Positions 3,724 through 27,966 of a stretch of DNA of 35,261 nucleotides are shown one piece after another. The DNA comes from an uncultured Prolixibacteraceae bacterium. GTDB taxonomy: Bacteria > Bacteroidota > Bacteroidia > Bacteroidales > Prolixibacteraceae. Within the stretch, counting starts at the first letter, position 1. Every line of letters starts with the position of its first letter. The position numbers and the translations under genes were made by a program. The stretch spans positions 1-35,261 of the forward strand of contig CAIPKZ010000399.1 of NCBI GenBank assembly GCA_903865775.1, given 5' to 3'. Under the pieces are notes generated by a model, which saw only the letters and a program-made list of their open reading frames with translations, was not told the origin of the DNA and made no database searches.

Positions 3724-3995
3724 TCCTGTAAGGTTTTGTGGTTTGCAACAAATTCTTCCATGTCCCTGAAGGTATCAGCAAACAAGTACAAGCTTGATAC
3801 AATTTTCTTGAATTCGCTTACCGGGGCGTCCTCAGAAAAATAGAGCGTAATAAACCTTGCGGCTTCGTTAAGCTCCTCTGAAACTTCATAAAATCCTTCG
3901 AATTGTTCTGCCAGGTCGAAAAGTGGCTGAATGTTTACATGCCTTCTGGTGGAAGGGTTCATGACCAGTACTGGTCCATTTTCATTTTTTGACAT
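3720..3995 (-). CDS. Small hypothetical protein
   Basis: 91 residues, acidic and largely helical (FDLAEQFEGFYEVSEELNEA; VSSLYLFADTFRDMEEFVA). It is the first gene of a coupled three-gene cluster. Its start lies 11 bp downstream of a large three-way-junction hairpin (4007-4095), which would form the 5' leader of this mRNA and may control it. Function not recognised. Confidence 0.72.
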   Translation of the reverse strand: MSKNENGPVLVMNPSTRRHVNIQPLFDLAEQFEGFYEVSEELNEAARFITLYFSEDAPVSEFKKIVSSLYLFADTFRDMEEFVANHKTLQE

Positions 3996-4006
3996 TTAAG
4001 TTCTCC

Positions 4007-4095
4007 TTAAATGGGAAATTCCCTGCTCCGCCTAGAGGCCCGCCAAGGCCTTTCCTCTCTTGCGAGAGAACGGAACAGGGAATTTCCCTATTTAA
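4007..4095 (-). ncRNA. Structured RNA element or leader (three-way junction)
   Basis: The outer stem pairs TTAAAT+GGGAAATTCCCTG (4007-4025) with CAGGGAATTTCCC+T+ATTTAA (4076-4095): 19 bp with one bulged base. Inside are two smaller hairpins, GGCC/GGCC (4037-4040 with 4047-4050) and CTCTC-TTGC-GAGAG (4055-4068). It lies between the gene at 4232-4759 and the gene starting at 3995. There is no U tract on either side, so it is not an ordinary terminator. It could be a cis-regulatory leader, a small RNA, a processing site or a DNA-level structure; the sequence does not say which. Confidence 0.55.
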
Positions 4096-4231
4096 GTTTT
4101 GAATTATCGATCTCATTGGTTGGCGGTTAACTAGGATGACAACTCTATGTTGTCATTACTGAGTGCAAATATAAGCCTGTTAAATCGAAAATCAATGTTG
4201 GATTCTAAAATATTTTACGGACTGTAAAATA

Positions 4232-4759
4232 TCAGCTTTCATTCCCATCAACTCCCCAAATAGTCATTGAAAGTTCTGAATCAATACGTGAAATCATTAA
4301 TGGATATTCATATTTATCGGAATCGCTCCAACTACGGCCAAAAAGTCCATATTCATCATTGGGATCCATCTCCTTTATGTCATTAGAATTAAAAGCCGCC
4401 TTATTGTCTGAATCATGCCCGTAAATAAGAAATAGATCATTTACAAGCGCTCTCAGCTTATTAATACTAATTGATCTTATTCCTTCAACTGTTAATGAAA
4501 TGTTTTTCTTTCCATTATTGAAAACTACAACCTCCATATAATCAAATATCCCCAATAATTTATCATTGTATCTTTTTCTATACTTAATTATTGGTTCATT
4601 TACGGTATTAAACTCATCAGAACCTTTAATGAACGTTTCGTCAGGTAATGATCTCAAATCGAACTCGAAAAAATCAAATATTGTTCGTTTTATTTTTTGC
4701 TCCTTTTTTGTTGTATCCAAAGACTCACTTTTGTTGAATAATTTTCCAAATAGTCCCAT
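4232..4759 (-). CDS. Hypothetical protein sharing an MGLFGKLF N-terminus with its neighbour
   Basis: 175 residues. It begins MGLFGKLFNKSE, almost the same as the start of the adjacent exonuclease gene (MGLFGKLFGSTK), followed in both by a polar linker. The rest is an acidic alpha/beta domain I cannot assign; it contains LTVEGIRSISINKLRALVND and ends in MTIWGVDGNES. The gene is visibly AT-richer than the structural genes. With the exonuclease gene it lies between the terminator at 5958-5986 and the hairpin at 4007-4095, which suggests a moron-like inserted pair. The shared amphipathic N-terminus may target both proteins to the same place; this is inference. Confidence 0.75.
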   Translation of the reverse strand: MGLFGKLFNKSESLDTTKKEQKIKRTIFDFFEFDLRSLPDETFIKGSDEFNTVNEPIIKYRKRYNDKLLGIFDYMEVVVFNNGKKNISLTVEGIRSISINKLRALVNDLFLIYGHDSDNKAAFNSNDIKEMDPNDEYGLFGRSWSDSDKYEYPLMISRIDSELSMTIWGVDGNES

Positions 4760-20489: not shown

Positions 20490-21365
20490 TTAATAATTAT
20501 TAAACATTGACTGAATTCTATTTTTCATACCCAATTTGTATGCTGCATCAATTGCATTCTCGATGGAATCTATCCGATCGCATAATCCAAGCTCTATGGC
20601 ACGTTTTGCCGAAAACATGGCTCCGGTAAAAGCCGGTGAATCTTCACTGATTCCTAAATTCTGAATAATGACCTGGTGAAAAATATCGTTGGTGAAATCA
20701 AGATCATCGACAATAGGTTTTGTGTCACCACTGAGAAGTGCACGGATTTCACCATCTTTTTCCGTGGCTTTGGTTGCATATATATCATAAATGGTGATCC
20801 CTAGTTTGTCTTTGAGAAAACCATTGATATCGGTGAAGGAAGTTTTTACACCAATGCTTCCAAAACGATCCAGCTGGCTTGATGCAATTCTTTCATTGCA
20901 AGCACTCACCAGCCACATTCCGGCACTGGCCGCCATATTAAGAACAAAAGCCACTGAAGGAAGTGGGCTGTTTTTAATAGCATCAGCTGCAATGTCGGTC
21001 ATGAACACCATTCCACCAGGTGTATTTACCAGGAAAAGAATGGAAATAATCTTTGGATTATTTTCGGCCATCCTGATGTGATCGATCAGCTCCATAGTCT
21101 TCCAGGCAACCATCACGCCCTGAATTGGAATAACAGCAATGGAATTTTCTGGAAGCTCAATGTCATTCAGATCCCATCGGTCGGCAAGTTTTCCAGGTCC
21201 TTCAGCAACAGCATAAGGCTTATTATTCTCTTTGTCGGCTCCAAAATCAGAAATGGCCATTTTGTTGCCATTAAGAAATGACACCATTAATGGCAGGTAA
21301 TTCAGAATTTCATTTCTATAGATCAACCAACGGGCGCTGAGAATATCGGAAAGGCGAGAATACAT
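20490..21365 (-). CDS. Head maturation protease, S49 (SppA/protein C-like)
   Basis: 291 residues. The S49 fold is clear: IAVIPIQGVM start, LFLVNTPGGMVF oxyanion loop, nucleophile S147 in NMAASAGMWL, then DRFGSIGVKTSFTDINGFL and the general-base lysine K199 in IYATKATEKDG. Such phage S49 peptidases cleave the scaffold part of the capsid precursor in the prohead. It ends 11 bp before the capsid gene, the standard protease-capsid arrangement. Confidence 0.92.
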   Translation of the reverse strand: MYSRLSDILSARWLIYRNEILNYLPLMVSFLNGNKMAISDFGADKENNKPYAVAEGPGKLADRWDLNDIELPENSIAVIPIQGVMVAWKTMELIDHIRMAENNPKIISILFLVNTPGGMVFMTDIAADAIKNSPLPSVAFVLNMAASAGMWLVSACNERIASSQLDRFGSIGVKTSFTDINGFLKDKLGITIYDIYATKATEKDGEIRALLSGDTKPIVDDLDFTNDIFHQVIIQNLGISEDSPAFTGAMFSAKRAIELGLCDRIDSIENAIDAAYKLGMKNRIQSMFNNY

Positions 21366-21948: not shown

Positions 21949-22473
21949 TTAAACAACTGATTTGCAGGTAATTAAACGTCTCTTTTTTAACATTCTGTTA
22001 AAATCGCGGTAAAAAGCTGAAAAACTGAGATCATCTTCCATAATATTATGCAATTCCATGAAGTTGATAGTGGCTATTCTGCGTTCAATTCCCTGTCGAA
22101 TTTGCTCTCGTATGAAGGTATGAAAATCGTAAACGAAATGCCGTTCAATTTCACGGCGAAAAATCTTTCTTGCATCCCGACCGAGGTAATTGTTTGCATC
22201 GATGTTTTTGAACTCGGAATAAGGTATTGCTATTTCGAGGTAATTGCTTCTAATGTAGTTCTCACACCAGGTTGATTCAAATTTGCAGGATCCGGCAAGG
22301 TTACAGAAAAAATCCGGTCTGTTGTTTACAGGCGGCCTGGTAAGATTTCGAAGAAGGAAGGCATTGTAATCTGATTTTTTTGGAAAAAAGACCGGCTCCT
22401 GGCCATAAAGAGAAATCAGATAATTTTTAATGTACTTTGGAACCTTCAGAAGTAGTGTAACTTGAGATGGCAT
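21949..22473 (-). CDS. Hypothetical protein downstream of the putative origin
   Basis: 174 residues, basic, helical in the second half (KIFRREIERHFVYDFHTFIR; FSAFYRDFNRMLKKRR). The charge suggests nucleic-acid binding. It is the first gene after the TGTGCA repeat cluster, which could hold its promoter or binding sites. I do not recognise the family. A replication or regulatory role is possible but unproven. Confidence 0.7.
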   Translation of the reverse strand: MPSQVTLLLKVPKYIKNYLISLYGQEPVFFPKKSDYNAFLLRNLTRPPVNNRPDFFCNLAGSCKFESTWCENYIRSNYLEIAIPYSEFKNIDANNYLGRDARKIFRREIERHFVYDFHTFIREQIRQGIERRIATINFMELHNIMEDDLSFSAFYRDFNRMLKKRRLITCKSVV

Positions 22474-22609
22474 TCATTGTCTTTTCCACAAATATCGCAT
22501 GATTGCGGAGTATTTGAAACGACGAAATATTGACCTGCATCATGAATTATTGACATCAATTTTCAATATTTAATACATCGTTACACACTGACACTAGGGC
22601 TTATCAAAA

Positions 22610-22930
22610 ACAGTGAAAAAAACTGTGCAGCTGTGCATTTGTGCAGAAAAACACGATAATGCAGGTTTTCAGCAAGTTAAAAAAAAGTTGTGCAAACTGT
22701 GCGCTTTTGTGCAAAACTGTGCAGAAAAAACACCATCCAACACTCTGACAATCAATTGATAAAAAACTGTGCAAAATTGTGCGCACAAATGCACAGTTTT
22801 TTTCCTATATTTTAACAAGTACCCCAATACAAAAGAGAAAATAAATAAAAAGAAGTATATATATACATGGTTTGTAGTATTTTACGCTATATTTTACCTC
22901 GATTTTTGTGCACAACTGTTCTAAAATTAA
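22610..22930. repeat. Cluster of TGTGCA repeats with AT-rich flank; candidate replication origin
   Basis: Ten direct copies of TGTGC(A/G) start at 22624, 22632, 22640, 22689, 22698, 22708, 22718, 22768, 22778 and 22907. Inverted copies lie at 22782, 22790 and 22909. Many are spaced 8-10 bp apart and sit in A/T-rich DNA, often as AACTGTGCA. An AT-only stretch (around 22854-22866) follows. The organisation looks like iterons plus an unwinding region. It lies between the replication/DGR genes and the head genes. A regulatory (repressor-binding) array is the alternative. Confidence 0.55.
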
Positions 22931-22990
22931 TCCCGGAATTGAAGGGGGCGTGGGGGAAACTAAGCCTTTTTTAAAGAACATCTATAAGGT

Positions 22991-23007
22991 GCTCTGCTAT
23001 GCAGAGC
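22991..23007. repeat. Perfect hairpin next to the DGR terminator
   Basis: GCTCTGC-TAT-GCAGAGC: 7-bp stem and 3-nt loop. It lies just downstream of the terminator at 23014-23039 in the minus direction. DGRs often carry a hairpin near the variable repeat, but this one is ~0.6 kb away from VR1, so a second termination structure is the simpler reading. Confidence 0.5.
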
Positions 23008-23059: not shown

Positions 23060-23180
23060 TCACAGTTTTGTGGGGTTACCATCACTGTCTAGTGGCAAGA
23101 ATGCGATCACATGATCATTGAATGATCCGTTGGGATCAGCATCGTAATAGAATTCTTCTCCATTATATTTGCCTGGCAAT
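23060..23180 (-). pseudogene. C-terminal remnant of an unidentified gene joined to the RT fragment
   Basis: In a different frame from the RT fragment, the minus strand encodes ~39 residues beginning KLPGKYNGEEFYYDADPNG and ending DSDGNPTKL before TGA at 23060-23062. No start codon precedes it in frame; it opens only after stop codons at the junction. It looks like the end of a longer acidic protein left by a deletion whose junction lies near 23165-23190. The parent gene is not recognised. Confidence 0.5.
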
Positions 23181-23298
23181 TTTTATCATGACCAATAACA
23201 CCGGGTTGTTTTAGCTTTCCTCTCCTGGAAATAGAATCAGCCAACTGGAGGTTTTCAATGCTACAAACCTTACTGTATAAATTCCCAATACTTTTCAT
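23164..23298 (-). pseudogene. Truncated DGR-type reverse transcriptase (N-terminal fragment)
   Basis: The ATG at 23298 opens MKSIGNLYSKVCSIENLQLA, then RRGKLKQPGV and HDKNCQANI. This matches, from memory, the conserved start of Bacteroidota DGR reverse transcriptases (IGNLY..I.S.ENL..AD...R.GK..Y.V..HD.N...NI). After residue ~40-45 homology stops and the frame ends at 23107. The palm with the YxDD catalytic motif (~300 residues) is absent here and in the other listed reading frames. Its place, ~97 bp downstream of the TR, is the normal place of a DGR RT. So this is the stump of an RT removed by deletion. If translated, it would give an inactive 63-residue peptide. Confidence 0.72.
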
Positions 23299-23394
23299 GC
23301 CTTTGTTTTAAAAAATCGTTTTCTCCGAGGGTACCAACGCTTTCTTACTTTCGTGATTTTTTGCTCTGTTAGCAAGGTTTATGCTGCAATATTT

Positions 23395-23478
23395 TCATAG
23401 GTGGGAGCTGACATTCGAGTTCGTATTATCGTAGTTGTAATTCGAGTTCGAAAAACCGAAACCTGAAGACAAAGCTGT
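23395..23478 (-). repeat. DGR template repeat (TR)
   Basis: 84-nt copy of the variable segment of the two upstream genes, noncoding and adenine-rich. Aligned codons read AAC TCG AAT TAC AAC TAC, then GAT AAT ACG AAC TCG AAT. Against VR1 (84 nt) and VR2 (76 nt) there are 17 mismatches each and every one is at a TR adenine; no C, G or T of the TR differs. Fourteen adenines at TR positions 31-59 form the diversified block (8 changed in VR1, 10 in VR2). The last ~20 nt (TGTCAGCTCCCACCTATGA) act as IMH*, differing from the identical IMH of both VRs at fixed sites. It starts 28 bp after the stop of the VR1 gene. Confidence 0.93.
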
Positions 23479-23506
23479 CAGCAAAACAGCATACAACCTC
23501 AATATT

Positions 23507-23938
23507 CTATTCTAAATACAAAAAGAACTCTTTGTATTCATCTTGAAAAGTTTCTGCTATATATAAAGCTTTTTCGCTACTATCAGTGCAAAGGCGGGAG
23601 CCGACACCCGAGCTCGCAATATCGCAGTCGTAAGTCGAGAACGAAAAACCGAAACCCGAAGACAAAGCCGCTGATGCTTGTATTCTTAACCATGGAAAAT
23701 ACTTATACTGGTTAAAATCATTCCAGTTTGGTATCCATCCATTATTGATCGCTTTGAAAATGATAAAAAGCTTATATACATTCACGATAGCTTTTCTCAT
23801 TTCTTCAGGGAGTAAAGAAACTTCCGGAAGCGTTGATGGATTCAGTGCTAGTTTTGCACACGCATCTTCAAATGATTTGATTGATTTGTAATCAAACGAT
23901 GTGTTTTGCTTTGCTGTTTTTGCTTTAGAATTGCTCAT
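23507..23938 (-). CDS. DGR target protein 1 (carries VR1)
   Basis: 143 residues, no signal peptide or membrane segment. The scaffold shares with its paralogue FEDAC near the N-terminus, INxGWxPxWN, a xxFPW motif, SSGFGFS and VGSRLC. The VR covers residues ~90-117, and the diversified residues are F100, T102, D104, C105, I107, A108 and S109. About 26 conserved-type residues follow (SEKALYIAETFQDEYKEF), so the variable part is internal and not at the C-terminus. I do not see a C-type lectin pattern. Likely cytoplasmic. Function unknown; a variable ligand-binding surface is implied by the DGR. Confidence 0.88.
   Translation of the reverse strand: MSNSKAKTAKQNTSFDYKSIKSFEDACAKLALNPSTLPEVSLLPEEMRKAIVNVYKLFIIFKAINNGWIPNWNDFNQYKYFPWLRIQASAALSSGFGFSFSTYDCDIASSGVGSRLCTDSSEKALYIAETFQDEYKEFFLYLE
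23588..23671 (-). repeat. DGR variable repeat 1 (VR1)
   Basis: 84 nt aligned without gaps to the TR at 23395-23478, with 17 differences, all opposite TR adenines (mostly A to G or T). The diversified block is 23613-23641. The 3' end TGTCGGCTCCCGCCTTTGC is identical to that of VR2 and serves as the presumed initiation-of-mutagenic-homing site. Confidence 0.92.
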
Positions 23939-23941
23939 TGT

Positions 23942-24304
23942 CTAGGATTTAAAAGTTATAAACTCTTCATAAATTTCAAGGAATTGCGAGGCTACATAGT
24001 CGCATTTTTCTTCTGTTTCGAAGCAAAGGCGGGAGCCGACACCCGAGTCCGAAATAACGTAGAAGAAAAACGAGTGCGAAAAACCGAAACCCGAAGACAG
24101 ACGGAACCATGGGAACCACTTTCTTTGGCTTAAATTATTCCAGTCAGGCACCCAGCCTTCGTTGATTACCTTAATAATTAGTTTTAACTTTTTGAAGGCT
24201 TTTTCATCCGGAGTATCCGTGGTTGAAAATACTTGGTCTTCGGTAATACCTGCTTCTTTACAGGCATCCTCGAACGTTTTGATTTTGTCAATGATTTTTT
24301 CCAT
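23942..24304 (-). CDS. DGR target protein 2 (carries VR2)
   Basis: 120 residues from the ATG at 24304 (MEKIIDKIKTFEDACKEAG); a start at 24358 would add 18 poorly matching residues and overlap the broken small gene upstream. It is paralogous to the next gene (FEDAC, VINEGWVPDWN, WFPWFR, SSGFGFS, SGVGSRLC, then a C-terminal helix with FLEIYEEF). Diversified residues are H77, F79, F80, F81, V83, I84, S85 and D86, unusually aromatic. The two genes are separated by 3 bp. No signal peptide or membrane anchor. Located just after the primase rather than in the tail module. Function unknown. Confidence 0.87.
   Translation of the reverse strand: MEKIIDKIKTFEDACKEAGITEDQVFSTTDTPDEKAFKKLKLIIKVINEGWVPDWNNLSQRKWFPWFRLSSGFGFSHSFFFYVISDSGVGSRLCFETEEKCDYVASQFLEIYEEFITFKS
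24023..24098 (-). repeat. DGR variable repeat 2 (VR2)
   Basis: 76 nt aligned without gaps to TR positions 9-84, with 17 differences, all at TR adenines. The diversified block is 24048-24076, where 10 of 14 adenines are replaced, mostly by T. Compared with VR1 the substitutions at these sites are largely independent, as expected for separate mutagenic homing events from one TR. Confidence 0.92.
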
Positions 24305-24320
24305 TTGTTGTTTTGTTTGA

Positions 24321-24569
24321 TTATTTATTAAGTGTTTCCAGCAATTGCTTACTGGCATTTAACATTCTTTTGAGAGAATCTATCAGATCATCCTTATCCT
24401 GTTTGTCGTGCGGCCAAATTGATCGAGGATCGGAATGCTGATTAAGCTTCCAAGTATTTAACCAAATTTGGTATTAAACCTTTTTGACATCTGGAGGATT
24501 ACCACAATTATTCATCATTGCTTCCTGGATCTTCTCATCAGTGAAATATAGATTTCCATGTTCTGACAT
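24321..24569 (-). pseudogene. Small gene broken by one in-frame TAA
   Basis: From ATG at 24569 the frame reads MSEHGNLYFTDEKIQEAMMN, reaches ...PPDVKKV, then TAA at 24474-24476. The same frame continues open for 50 more codons (YQIWLNTWKLNQHSDPRS ... RMLNASKQLLETLNK) to TAA at 24321-24323. The second half has natural-looking composition and ends cleanly before the VR2 gene, so this looks like one ~82-residue gene with a nonsense mutation. It starts 3 bp after the primase stop. Other genes here use TAA as stop, so recoding is unlikely. A real 31-residue peptide is the alternative. Confidence 0.55.
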
Positions 24570-24572
24570 CGC

Positions 24573-27500
24573 TTAAAATTTAGCGTTAGCAATTGTGATA
24601 TATTCGACACCAGCACTCTTATCATAACCTGGACGGCCATTTGAAAGTTCTGCGATGTGTGGATTAACCCTTAGTTTACGATACTTGCTATAAGCCAGCA
24701 TTTTTTTATAGAATGCATTTGATGTTATGAACTTTTTCTGAGTTGGATTTTTATCAAGGAAATCATTAAACATTTGCCTGCGTTCTAGTCTCATGTTGAG
24801 ATTAGAATGAGTACCAATTTCTACCTCATTAACATCATCATCATCTGAAATGCAGAAGAATTCGTCGGCCCAGCTGAAGAATGTCTCACCTGCCTCTTGT
24901 CGTAACCTACGCATCTCGAGACGTTCCAATGGTGGGTTTATCAACCCTGAATTATTCGCTCCCCAGCCAAGTTTCTGAGCTTTGAAATAAAGCTGCAGGC
25001 AGCTGGCCATGAAATTCAGAAATAGGTTTCTTTGTGTTGCATCCCATTCGCTGAAAAAGTTAACACCGAAATCATGTATGGGCTTATGGTCATCACTGTA
25101 AAAATCAGAAAAAGCAATTAATGCCTGGCGATCTTTGAAAGATCCGGTGTTCCCATTAATTGCATGGTTAGTTGAAATGTAAAACTTAGGAGTTGTCTTT
25201 TCATCCAGGGTAACCTTACCTATCCCCTTTTTGTTGACTGCCATCCTGCCGGTAATCAGCGGAAAAAAGAACTCAAAGTCCAGGTTAACGCGAACGTCGT
25301 CAATAAAAACATTTCTGATCTTGTCCGAAATCTCCTCAAACAAAAATTTATCCTCTGTAAGATCCCGGGTCTTGCCTGAGATATAAGTTTGAGGGATGAT
25401 CTGGCCGATTGCTTCACCCAATAAACTTTTTCCAGATCTACCATTCGCATCGCCTACCTGGCTATTCTTGCCGTCCATGCCTATTACAGCTTTCTCACAT
25501 GATTTATCCCGGAATTCATGAAGTAGATATCCAATTGCTGTCATTTTGCTTACAAAATGCAGGTTTGTTTCAAGCTTTTCGTCGATGGTGCGAGTATCAT
25601 CCTTGTCAGGTAAAGGCTCTCGCTTCGAATTGTAACACTTTTCCCAGAAGAATTCACTTGTGTTGAAAATGAATCTGGCAAAATGGCAATCCATGGCCTT
25701 TGACATATCAACAGAAAATTGTCCTTCCTTGCCTTCTAATTCTACTGGGAAGCTCTTTAGCTTTTGTTTTAACTGATCATCTATTCGTTCGACTGAAATA
25801 AACTCATTCTCGAGGAGTTTAGCATCGAAGTTTATGACCTGGTCTTTCCATAAATAGTTCTGTATTTTTGAAAGCGGCCTTTCCTCAATCGAATCGGCTG
25901 TAATCTTCCAATACTTTTCATTGAAGTACATGTATTGGTAACCTTTATCGGAGCGCTCGAAAACCGGATGCACAAAATCAATGTTACTTAAACTGTCTGG
26001 TCCAAAATACATTCTTGAGCCAGTATACAACATGTCAAGTACCTCAGTAAAATGATCCTGCTTAACATTTTCTTTCGTGAATTCCATCACAAAGTCTCTG
26101 ATTTCATAAGGCTCTACTATGCTTACTATTTTATTGTCGAGCTTGCAAAAATCAAATTTCTTATTGCCAATATTTATGCGTCCAAAACCCCGTCTTTTCA
26201 GGAAATTAAAAGCATAGGTTGGTTTAAACTTGTATAAAAAGTAGCGATCACCAGAGCGACTTTCTTTAGGTATGATGGTCCAGTATTGTTCATCCTCTTC
26301 CAGGGGTTGAGCTGCTACAAGTTTTCCATCATCAAACCTCCATTTATTTCTTCCAATCACAAATTCTGGTATGTTTTCCAGAATGTTCTTGTACTTATTC
26401 GCAAAAATATGATTTGACTGGAGCGACCAAAACTCAAGCAATTTCAAATCGGATACTGTTGATATTTTATTTAGCTGTATGTATTTACCGGCACCATCCT
26501 TTTCATTAATGGCCGTGTCGATATCATTGTACAAATCATTCTCTTTGCCCTGCAATGTATTTGCAAGCAGATCATCAATTCCCTTATCATTCTTTTCATT
26601 ATCGCGGATGTATGCAAAGTATATCTCAAGATATATACCCATGTTGGTAAATGTTTTGAGATAATCACGATAGTTTTTTATTGCGTAATAAAAAGAAAAT
26701 GGACGCTGGTCTACCCGGTCACCAACCTTTATATTATTACTTAACTTATCCCAGTCGGAGTCAAGTACAAAAATTACTTCCTCTACCATAAGATCCTGAA
26801 TGATAAGTTGTAATTCATACGGTAAATGACCCTTCGAACCAAGGTTTTGAATACCCATTACACCAACTGAAAACAAACCATGTTTGCTGGCTTTTTCTGC
26901 TTTTTTTTCACCTTCCTGAATGTATAATCGTTTGATTGCCCGTTTGTCTTTGTATGCCTTTCGTACAATTTCGGGGATATATAAATGAGAACCAGAACCG
27001 TAAGGTGATGCATACTTCATCGGCCTGTCCAGCTTATCTTTATTTAAATCAGGATTCTGCCAGCGGATCCTGAACAAATTTTCGATTTTTGATGATTTCG
27101 GTTTTTCGAAAGTAACCGGCTTACCCTCAAGATCGAAGTAATGAATAATCATATCATCACCGGGCACAATTCTGCCATACTGATCGCGGGTACCGGATTC
27201 GAATACATCAACTATTTTTTGTTTCCCATCATCAATCACAACCGTTGCCTTTTGATCGGCATCAGTAAGGCCAGATAAGGACAGTTGTTTATCGCGAAAC
27301 GTTTCGCGGGTAGGGTTTCCTTTACGTTGTGGACCCTTTGGACGTTCCTCATCGGGGATGATAATATTATATTTATCAGCCAGGTATTTTAATGCTTCAG
27401 GATAAGATTTATTTGCAGCTTTTGTGAGGTAATGTATTGATGTCTTGCCACTTAAATCGCAATTAAAACACTTGAAAATATTTTTGCCCGGAGATATTAT

Positions 27501-27656
27501 TAATCCTTTGTCTTTACCTTCAGCGCCACATTGTGGACATTTACAAGTGAAGGAAGCTCCTCGCTTTTTGATGGGAGTAATGAAATCAGCAATCACATCA
27601 ATGAGGTTAGCGCAATCTGTGATCGTCTTTACAATTTCTGGTGGGATCTTACTCAT
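24573..27656 (-). CDS. Bifunctional DNA primase-helicase (CHC2 zinc finger, TOPRIM, D5/SF3-type helicase)
   Basis: 1027 residues from the ATG at 27656, which overlaps the upstream stop by 8 bp; an upstream ATG at 27689 would extend further into the preceding gene. N-terminal CHC2-type zinc ribbon: CKCPQCG plus FKCFNCDLSGK. TOPRIM region in the first third: RLYIQEGEKKAEKA (glutamate) and EEVIFVLDSDWD (acidic pair). C-terminal helicase with Walker A GRSGKSLLGEAIG near residue 740, Walker B-like IRNVFIDDVRV and sensor-like PKFYISTNHAINGN. This makes primers and unwinds DNA at the phage fork. Fusion of all three modules is typical of self-replicating phages and plasmids. Confidence 0.92.
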   Translation of the reverse strand: MSKIPPEIVKTITDCANLIDVIADFITPIKKRGASFTCKCPQCGAEGKDKGLIISPGKNIFKCFNCDLSGKTSIHYLTKAANKSYPEALKYLADKYNIIIPDEERPKGPQRKGNPTRETFRDKQLSLSGLTDADQKATVVIDDGKQKIVDVFESGTRDQYGRIVPGDDMIIHYFDLEGKPVTFEKPKSSKIENLFRIRWQNPDLNKDKLDRPMKYASPYGSGSHLYIPEIVRKAYKDKRAIKRLYIQEGEKKAEKASKHGLFSVGVMGIQNLGSKGHLPYELQLIIQDLMVEEVIFVLDSDWDKLSNNIKVGDRVDQRPFSFYYAIKNYRDYLKTFTNMGIYLEIYFAYIRDNEKNDKGIDDLLANTLQGKENDLYNDIDTAINEKDGAGKYIQLNKISTVSDLKLLEFWSLQSNHIFANKYKNILENIPEFVIGRNKWRFDDGKLVAAQPLEEDEQYWTIIPKESRSGDRYFLYKFKPTYAFNFLKRRGFGRINIGNKKFDFCKLDNKIVSIVEPYEIRDFVMEFTKENVKQDHFTEVLDMLYTGSRMYFGPDSLSNIDFVHPVFERSDKGYQYMYFNEKYWKITADSIEERPLSKIQNYLWKDQVINFDAKLLENEFISVERIDDQLKQKLKSFPVELEGKEGQFSVDMSKAMDCHFARFIFNTSEFFWEKCYNSKREPLPDKDDTRTIDEKLETNLHFVSKMTAIGYLLHEFRDKSCEKAVIGMDGKNSQVGDANGRSGKSLLGEAIGQIIPQTYISGKTRDLTEDKFLFEEISDKIRNVFIDDVRVNLDFEFFFPLITGRMAVNKKGIGKVTLDEKTTPKFYISTNHAINGNTGSFKDRQALIAFSDFYSDDHKPIHDFGVNFFSEWDATQRNLFLNFMASCLQLYFKAQKLGWGANNSGLINPPLERLEMRRLRQEAGETFFSWADEFFCISDDDDVNEVEIGTHSNLNMRLERRQMFNDFLDKNPTQKKFITSNAFYKKMLAYSKYRKLRVNPHIAELSNGRPGYDKSAGVEYITIANAKF

Positions 27657-27966
27657 GGTCGATGGTGGATGTTGGAGATAGAGCAGCAAAAACAGATTGG
27701 ATGCGTTTTTGAAACACTTTATCAGTGTCGTTTAAATTGTTGAATACCTTTAAACCATGGACTAGCGTTCCATTTGATATTAAATACTCCTGACAAATTT
27801 CTTTGCGTTTTTTACCATACAAAACCTCAAAATGCCAGACAACAAACCTTGCTTCAGGAATCAATCCTTTTCCCTTCTTTGAATATATCTGCTCCTCGGT
27901 TAGGCCATAAATTTTGAGTATGATGTTTTTGTTGAAAGCAACACCTGGTGCTGAGAAGTAAGTCAT
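27649..27966 (-). CDS. DnaA domain IV-like DNA-binding protein
   Basis: 105 residues. The middle resembles the DNA-binding domain IV of DnaA: PEARFVVWHFEVLYGKKRKE, then EICQEYLISNGTLVHGLKVF at the place of the DnaA 'DHSTV..A' signature helix, then a final helix (DKVFQKRIQSVF). There is no AAA+ domain. It directly precedes and overlaps the primase-helicase, so an initiator or helicase-loading role at the phage origin is likely. The TGTGCA repeat cluster is a candidate target. Homology is judged by eye; a generic HTH protein is the alternative. Confidence 0.65.
   Translation of the reverse strand: MTYFSAPGVAFNKNIILKIYGLTEEQIYSKKGKGLIPEARFVVWHFEVLYGKKRKEICQEYLISNGTLVHGLKVFNNLNDTDKVFQKRIQSVFAALSPTSTIDHE

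What the first reader, a model, noticed from the sequence alone, without database searches (positions are those of the whole stretch)
23395..24098. A diversity-generating retroelement: TR plus two tandem VR genes with purely adenine-specific differences
The TR (23395-23478) aligns without gaps to VR1 (23588-23671) and VR2 (24023-24098). I counted 17 mismatches for each and all are at TR adenines; none of the C, G or T positions differ. In the diversified block (TR positions 31-59) 8 of 14 adenines are changed in VR1 and 10 of 14 in VR2, mostly independently. The 3' end has an IMH/IMH*-like pair, identical in both VRs and different in the TR. Such a bias cannot come from ordinary divergence.
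Basis: partly seen in the sequence, partly recalled or inferred. Interest (0 to 1): 0.95.

Follow-up and report, generated by a model that had tools for sequence, protein, structure and literature searches.

The report
Phage diversity retroelement without reverse transcriptase
This phage sequence carries the template and two hypervariable target genes of a protein-diversifying retroelement, but the reverse transcriptase that does the diversifying is cut down to a stub, so it looks like a recently silenced system that still records its past activity.

Summary
The TR/VR observation is correct: all 17 TR-VR1 and all 17 TR-VR2 differences lie opposite TR adenines on the minus strand (p about 4e-13 and 2e-13). 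It is the footprint of a diversity-generating retroelement (DGR) in two tandem target genes of a temperate-phage contig. Collinear relatives carry an intact module: target-target-TR-RT-~100-aa gene. The window keeps TR, IMH/IMH*-like ends and template-RNA structure. Most likely it is a recently frozen DGR. A second RT deletion was found (L109). Two lineage features stand out: an 11-12-bp covarying stem enclosing the whole TR, and an OB-like protein gene beside the RT in 77 of 80 loci and in one open frame with it in three genomes. DGRs with inactivated RTs are already in print (PMC3521204, section 8).

The parts
23395..23478 (-). Template repeat (TR), non-coding, with IMH*-like 3' end
23588..23671 (-). 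Variable repeat 1 (VR1)
   Evidence: 17 of 17 mismatches at TR A
24023..24098 (-). Variable repeat 2 (VR2)
   Evidence: 17 of 17 mismatches at TR A
23507..23938 (-). Target gene B (143 aa) holding VR1; phrog_11581
   Evidence: E 3e-25
23942..24358 (-). Target gene A (138 aa) holding VR2; phrog_11581
   Evidence: E 2.1e-23
23486..23498 (-). 5' strand of stem P1, upstream of the TR
   Evidence: covarying stem in a 59-sequence alignment
23376..23387 (-). 3' strand of stem P1, downstream of the TR (P1 encloses the TR)
23362..23374 (-). Hairpin P2 of the spacer RNA
23314..23342 (-). Stems P3/P4 of the spacer RNA; Rfam RT-17-like (hit 23293-23379, 25.0 bits, below the 40.4 gathering score)
23107..23298 (-). 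Truncated RT: 63-aa ORF whose first ~45-50 codons are the N-terminus of a DGR-type RT; the rest is non-homologous
   Evidence: phrog_1423, E 0.0047; 64% over 53 aa; 63% over 49 aa, E 4e-13
23063..23182 (-). 3' end (40 codons) of an unrelated ORF in another frame, joined to the RT stub; origin unknown
   Evidence: (only two weak hits besides itself in 140 genomes)
24573..27689 (-). Primase-like gene upstream of the module (collinear anchor)
21949..22473 (-). 174-aa gene downstream of the deletion (collinear anchor)
20490..21365 (-). Head maturation protease (collinear anchor)

Best explanation
A phage-borne DGR of a lineage built as target-target-TR-RT-OB-like gene in phages of Bacteroidota diversified the two small target genes by adenine-specific mutagenic retrohoming. 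A deletion then removed the RT from about codon 45-50 on, the OB-like partner gene, and the start of a following gene. TR, template-RNA structure, IMH/IMH*-like ends and both target ORFs remain. Without an RT in the phage or elsewhere in the host assembly the system is frozen in cis, and the VRs are a record of past mutagenesis. Shown: A-only TR/VR pattern, RT stub, no other RT found in the assembly, intact homologous modules in collinear relatives, conserved RNA structure. Inferred: that the deletion is real in the organism, that it is recent, and that no diversification occurs now.
For: A-only mismatches 17/17 and 17/17. RT stub found by phrog_1423 and by full-length relatives. In the own genome (4.89 Mb, 500 contigs, 99.64% complete) 0 RVT_1 and 0 phrog_1423 matches at E 0.001, and a relative's full-length RT finds only the stub even at E 10. 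The same RVT_1 search finds the DGR RTs of same-genus genomes G010, G021 and G022. The partner gene has no match in the own genome. In the collinear phage L100/L139 the order is primase-T-T-TR-RT-partner-p174-p147-protease-MCP...terL; RT start to p174 start is 2619 bp there and 825 bp in the window. A second RT deletion (L109) leaves TR and VRs with 35 of 36 mismatches at A. No change at the 61 (VR1) and 55 (VR2) non-A TR positions compared, which suggests recent loss. The window's RNA still forms 23 of the 24 conserved pairs.
Against: The genome is a 500-contig draft, so a missed RT cannot be wholly excluded. No reads were available to confirm the junction. The 40-codon fragment at the junction has no known relative that would show the ancestral arrangement. 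Lack of drift at non-A sites also fits ongoing retrohoming by an RT supplied in trans.
Confidence: 0.82

Rival explanations
1. The RT is missing only from the assembly: the contig is a misjoin, and the organism carries a complete, working DGR here.
For: Draft of 500 contigs; the sequence after the junction has no known relative; 77 of 80 partner-gene loci have an RT directly upstream and only 1 is a true absence.
Against: The contig resumes in the expected collinear gene order after the junction. The RT body was found on no other contig, though a simple misjoin would leave it there. A second RT deletion exists in another contig.
Confidence: 0.09
2. A non-autonomous DGR still diversified in trans by the RT of co-infecting or co-resident relatives.
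For: TR, IMH/IMH*-like ends and RNA stems are kept. Same-genus genomes carry related intact modules. RT loss occurred more than once (L109). In G024 a target about 23 kb from its TR/RT matches that TR with mostly adenine-specific differences, so remote action is plausible.
Against: No RT or partner gene found in this genome. RT-less copies look rare: 1 of 78 informative partner-gene loci (this scan cannot find copies that lost the partner gene too) and 1 of 7 strong RNA hits in 395 genomes, that one being the window. Recent loss explains the lack of drift as well.
Confidence: 0.08
3. Ordinary duplication and divergence of repeats, not retrohoming.
For: None found beyond the repeats being paralogous.
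Against: p about 1e-13 for each VR; the same pattern at 12 related loci, 359 of 364 mismatches at TR A in 23 comparisons, each locus with an RT after the TR (that of L005 cut by the contig end).
Confidence: 0.01

Closest known systems
Diversity-generating retroelements, prototype Bordetella phage BPP-1
   Same: TR and VR repeats, adenine-only differences, IMH/IMH*-like pair, VR inside an ORF, TR followed by a structured spacer and then the RT (BPP-1 layout from passages of PMC12875486).
   Different: RT reduced to a stub; in relatives an OB-like ~100-aa gene follows the RT, and the ~200-nt gap between target and RT leaves no room for an avd gene there (the Avd family itself was not searched); two tandem small targets, in the window beside a primase gene; VR 26 codons before the stop.
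DGRs with inactivated RTs (Ruminococcus gnavus, Acaryochloris marina, Bacteroides sp. 9_1_42FAA; PMC3521204, section 8 read)
   Same: RT broken, VR/TR repeats intact with only A mutations; those authors also infer very recent inactivation.
   Different: Those are nonsense, insertion and frameshift cases; here most of the RT and the partner gene are missing and the stub is joined to unrelated sequence.
Rfam RT-17 RNA (RF03020)
   Same: The full model aligns to 23293-23379 between TR and RT; relative L077 exceeds the gathering score (40.7 vs 40.4).
   Different: Window scores 25.0 bits, below gathering; the hit reaches only the last 4 nt of P1's 3' strand, so RT-17 does not include the stem that encloses the TR.
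phrog_11581 (targets), phrog_1423 (RT), phrog_19665 (partner gene)
   Same: Window targets match phrog_11581, the RT stub weakly phrog_1423, and a relative's partner gene phrog_19665.
   Different: phrog_11581 and phrog_19665 are listed with unknown function; the DGR link comes from this analysis.

Membership tests
Diversity-generating retroelement (complete) | TR and VR near-identical repeats | tested here: met
   (80% and 78% identity)
Diversity-generating retroelement (complete) | Differences confined to TR adenines | tested here: met
   17/17 and 17/17, p 4.0e-13 and 1.6e-13
Diversity-generating retroelement (complete) | VR within an intact ORF | tested here: met
Diversity-generating retroelement (complete) | IMH in VR and differing IMH* in TR | tested here: met
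   by sequence only, function not tested
Diversity-generating retroelement (complete) | DGR-type RT with (I/V/L)GxxxSQ and YxDD motifs | tested here: not met
   Window has only ~45-50 N-terminal codons. RTs of the relatives printed carry IGNYLSQ and YADD.
Diversity-generating retroelement (complete) | Adenine-mutagenic retrohoming activity | not testable with these tools
   Needs reads or an assay
[quoted passage not shown]
   Model of target A has mean pLDDT 77.4 but below 50 at residues 90-98 in the VR; no useful PDB match. In G024 one TR matches a target of this family and a 572-aa protein whose C-terminus looks C-Lec-like (that fold name is recalled, not tested).
Rfam RT-17 | Score at or above the 40.4-bit gathering score | tested here: not met
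   Window 25.0 bits, E 0.045; 1 of 12 related loci (L077, 40.7) passes
OB fold (partner gene of relatives) | OB fold | tested here: inconclusive
   Model mean pLDDT 87.6 with b-b-b-a-b-b order; VIA best Z 6.4 (RuvB-like 2 fragment 2cqa), Z 5.6, rmsd 2.9, 67 aligned to SSB 3lgj; Foldseek best E 0.07. Middling scores.

The most novel reading that the evidence does not exclude
This DGR lineage uses a distinct ribonucleoprotein: the whole template is closed by a conserved stem (P1) that would stop reverse transcription at its 5' end and bring the TR 3' end next to the priming spacer, and the RT works with an OB-like nucleic-acid-binding partner. RT-less copies such as the window and L109 are then non-autonomous elements that can still be diversified in trans by helper phages.
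Probability: 0.12. Interest if true: 0.8.

Novelty: new variant of a known kind. Interest (0 to 1): 0.5.

Why it matters
It shows a DGR that seems to have been caught soon after losing its RT, with related phages in intact, RT-less, target-only and DGR-less states, so gain and loss of targeted hypermutation can be followed. It also exposes a covarying RNA stem around the template and a tightly linked RT partner gene. Both give testable hypotheses on how a DGR fixes its template boundaries and which partners a DGR RT can use.

Tried and rejected
Rejected: repeat divergence (adenine specificity). An RT elsewhere in the genome: RVT_1, phrog_1423 and a relative's full-length RT gave at most the stub. 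An origin for the 40-codon fragment: besides itself, two weak hits in 140 genomes (E 0.07 and 0.09) and nothing convincing among the loci held. PDB fold of the target: Foldseek best E 8.7; VIA aligned 5 chains, one at Z 2.1. BFVD matches to the target with the best E-values (5.8e-4, 8.0e-4) are uncharacterised viral proteins. Scans of viral contigs with the window primase and protease found no relative; the terminase scan found 13. Paper searches for orphan, RT-less or decayed DGRs listed nothing relevant; the known case came from reading PMC3521204, which one search had listed. Weak RNA-model hits in G421, G203 and G434 (26-29 bits) had no DGR gene match beside them and are taken as chance.

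Against tight pairing of RT and partner gene: in G396 (L120) a full RT with a strong RNA hit has no partner-gene match in the ~550 bp held after it; in G302 (L121) a partner-like match lies upstream, not seen by the profile search. Against a fixed target-RT module: 2 of 13 viral loci found with target A (L017, L018; 32% identity) show no RT match.

Dropped rows: one VR of L006 could not be extended; 12 of 98 sequences were skipped for the RNA region for want of a target match or an RT start; 59 of 64 distinct RNA regions went into A3, leaving out L026, L037, L066, L096 and L101. The extension score charged nothing for mismatches at A, which favours A-only alignments slightly. The 80 partner-gene loci are 77 distinct sequences and include contigs already found with the targets.

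Full report
Observation. The TR at 23395-23478 and the VRs at 23588-23671 and 24023-24098 align without gaps. On the minus strand, the coding strand of both targets, every one of the 17 TR-VR1 and 17 TR-VR2 mismatches is at a TR adenine; p is 4.0e-13 and 1.6e-13. The 3' ends carry a pair like IMH and IMH*. Both VRs sit in intact ORFs of 143 and 138 aa, 26 codons before the stop. Both proteins match phrog_11581, of unknown function, and no Pfam family at E 0.01.

Setting. The window is contig C399 of an unnamed 4.89-Mb, 500-contig assembly, estimated 99.64% complete. It carries an integrase, a head maturation protease and a primase-like gene, so it is a temperate phage or prophage.

The missing enzyme. 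Downstream of the TR a 63-aa ORF (23298..23107, minus) weakly matches phrog_1423, Reverse transcriptase (E 0.0047). Full-length relatives align to its start: 64% over 53 aa, 63% over 49 aa. Nucleotide homology ends near 23165-23186. After that comes, in another frame, the 3' end of an unrelated ORF (40 codons) with no convincing relative in 140 genomes of the family. In the own genome RVT_1 and phrog_1423 give no match at E 0.001, and a relative's RT finds only the stub at E up to 10. The RVT_1 search is sensitive enough: it matched in 7 of 9 genomes tested, including the DGR RTs of G010, G021 and G022; the own genome and G012 had none.

Relatives. Of 61 genomes near the window's own (itself included), 5 encode a relative of target A: the own one, G010, G021, G022 and G024. 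In G010, G021 and G022 two tandem targets are followed by TR and a ~320-aa RT. All 3 loci found in genome contigs and 11 of 13 found in viral contigs also have an RT after the targets; L017 and L018 do not. At 12 such loci, 359 of 364 mismatches over 23 TR-VR comparisons are at TR A.

Partner gene. Directly after the RT, abutting or overlapping its end, lies a ~100-aa gene (phrog_19665), called ACC here. A scan of viral contigs with ACC (256 confirmed, best 80 kept) gave RT immediately upstream in 77 of 80 loci, 4 of these RTs being cut by a contig end; 2 loci are cut before the RT and 1, L109, truly lacks it. In 395 genomes of the class ACC occurs in 5, all 5 beside an RT. In G024, G241 and G362 RT and ACC share one open frame. 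The pairing is not absolute: G396 has RT and RNA but no ACC match after it. The ACC model is OB-like (mean pLDDT 87.6) with middling matches to OB proteins (best Z 6.4; SSB Z 5.6). I infer that ACC is a DGR accessory protein of this lineage. Whether it has been described is uncertain: PMC10053308 (passages seen) mentions one suggested DGR-associated protein without a Pfam that I could not identify.

Collinear phages. The window's terminase finds 13 viral loci. L139 lies on the same contig as L100, which has the window's gene order with an intact module: primase-T-T-TR-RT-ACC-...-p174-p147-protease-MCP-...-terminase. RT start to p174 start is 2619 bp there and 825 bp in the window, so about 1.8 kb is missing if the ancestor was like L100. 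L133/L134 have target, TR, RT and ACC too. L130, the closest by terminase (75%), has no target, RT or ACC match between primase and p174. L140 keeps two VR-bearing targets with no separate TR hit and no RT in its 40.9-kb contig. Seven viral records were searched whole for an RT (those of L100, L109, L130, L131, L133, L138, L140): 3 hold one (L100, L131, L133) and 4 do not; records may be fragments. A second related prophage contig of the own genome, C428, shows no DGR match between primase and protease.

L109. Here RT is deleted almost exactly: about the first four RT codons run in frame into ACC, and ATCA at the join occurs at both places in relative L085. TR, RNA (22 of 24 pairs) and VRs remain, and 35 of 36 TR-VR mismatches are at A. 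RT loss has thus happened at least twice among these phages, if both contigs are true.

Template RNA. Between target B and RT the relatives share a structure. RNAalifold on 59 sequences found, unaided, a stem P1 whose strands lie on either side of the TR, then a hairpin P2 and stems P3/P4. Counting the structure I named: 95.2% of cells paired, 17 of 24 pairs with two-sided changes, 164 two-sided cells against 43.5 +/- 7.9 in shuffles (0 of 500 reach it) and at most 32 in slid controls. P1 alone has 8 of 12 pairs with two-sided changes. The window forms 23 of 24 pairs; the one lost is in P4. Rfam RT-17 covers little more than P2-P4: the window scores 25.0 bits, below gathering, and 1 of 12 relatives passes it. 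A covariance model of the whole region matches 11 of 395 genomes of the class, 7 of them strongly (E below 1e-16); 6 of these 7 have a full RT next to it, the window does not. The model was built with the window included, so its own score is no test.

Mechanism. BPP-1, as described in PMC12875486 (passages seen), folds its spacer to recruit RT-Avd, primes cDNA from a spacer adenine and ends it within the upstream avd mRNA. By analogy I infer that P1 closes the template and may stop reverse transcription at the TR 5' side, that P2-P4 recruit the RT, and that ACC takes Avd's place. In the window the RNA part survives and the protein part is gone. No change at 61 (VR1) or 55 (VR2) non-A TR positions suggests the loss is recent (rule of three: under about 5% divergence; inference). 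PMC3521204 (section 8 read) drew the same conclusion for other DGRs with broken RTs, so an inactivated DGR is not new in itself.

Trans activity. It cannot be excluded. In G024 a DGR serves a local 572-aa target and, about 23 kb away, a target of the window's family whose VR matches the same TR. Local: 18 of 20 mismatches at A over 100 positions. Remote: 21 of 28 at A over 97 positions, 5 of the 7 others in the first 9 positions. An RT from a co-infecting relative could therefore perhaps act on the window's TR and VRs. I give this 0.08.

Target fold. Target A's model is helical N-terminally and poor in the VR, with no useful PDB match. PMC8144416 (section 8 read) reports that annotated VR regions are C-Lec folds, typically at C-termini; here the VR is internal and its fold is undecided.

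Limits. Draft assembly, no reads, no bench data. The paper library is partial: the papers known to me as Wu 2018 and Handa 2025 (references listed) were not held. My searches do not show that P1 or ACC are undescribed. Passages only were seen of PMC6642488, PMC8143477 and PMC4159848.

Noticed in passing
L114, L118/L143, L125/L147 (G024, G241, G362): RT and the ~100-aa OB-like gene share one open frame, suggesting that the two proteins work together.
   Followed up: partly
L109 (IMGVR_UViG_3300030943_000358), about 3955-4300: Independent RT deletion that fuses about the first four RT codons in frame to the partner gene; TR and VRs kept.
   Followed up: yes
G024 contig C38 (L114 and L029): One TR matches a local 572-aa target and a remote target about 23 kb away of the window's family.
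   Followed up: partly
window 22471-23000: Cluster of TGTGCA motifs: 10 of the 26 in the whole window, both strands; an iteron-like or origin-like region between the DGR remnant and the head genes.
   Followed up: no
L140, 70-776: Two VR-like targets (89 of 111 positions the same) with no separate TR hit and no RT in the contig: targets outliving their DGR, or served from elsewhere.
   Followed up: partly
G000 contig C428 (L154): A second related prophage fragment in the same genome, protease 53% identical, with no DGR match at the corresponding place.
   Followed up: partly
L120 (G396) and L121 (G302): Exceptions to the RT-partner order: in L120 no partner match follows the RT; in L121 a weak partner-like match lies upstream of the RNA.
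   Followed up: partly
L017, L018: Distant target relatives (32% identity) without an RT match in the stretch held.
   Followed up: no
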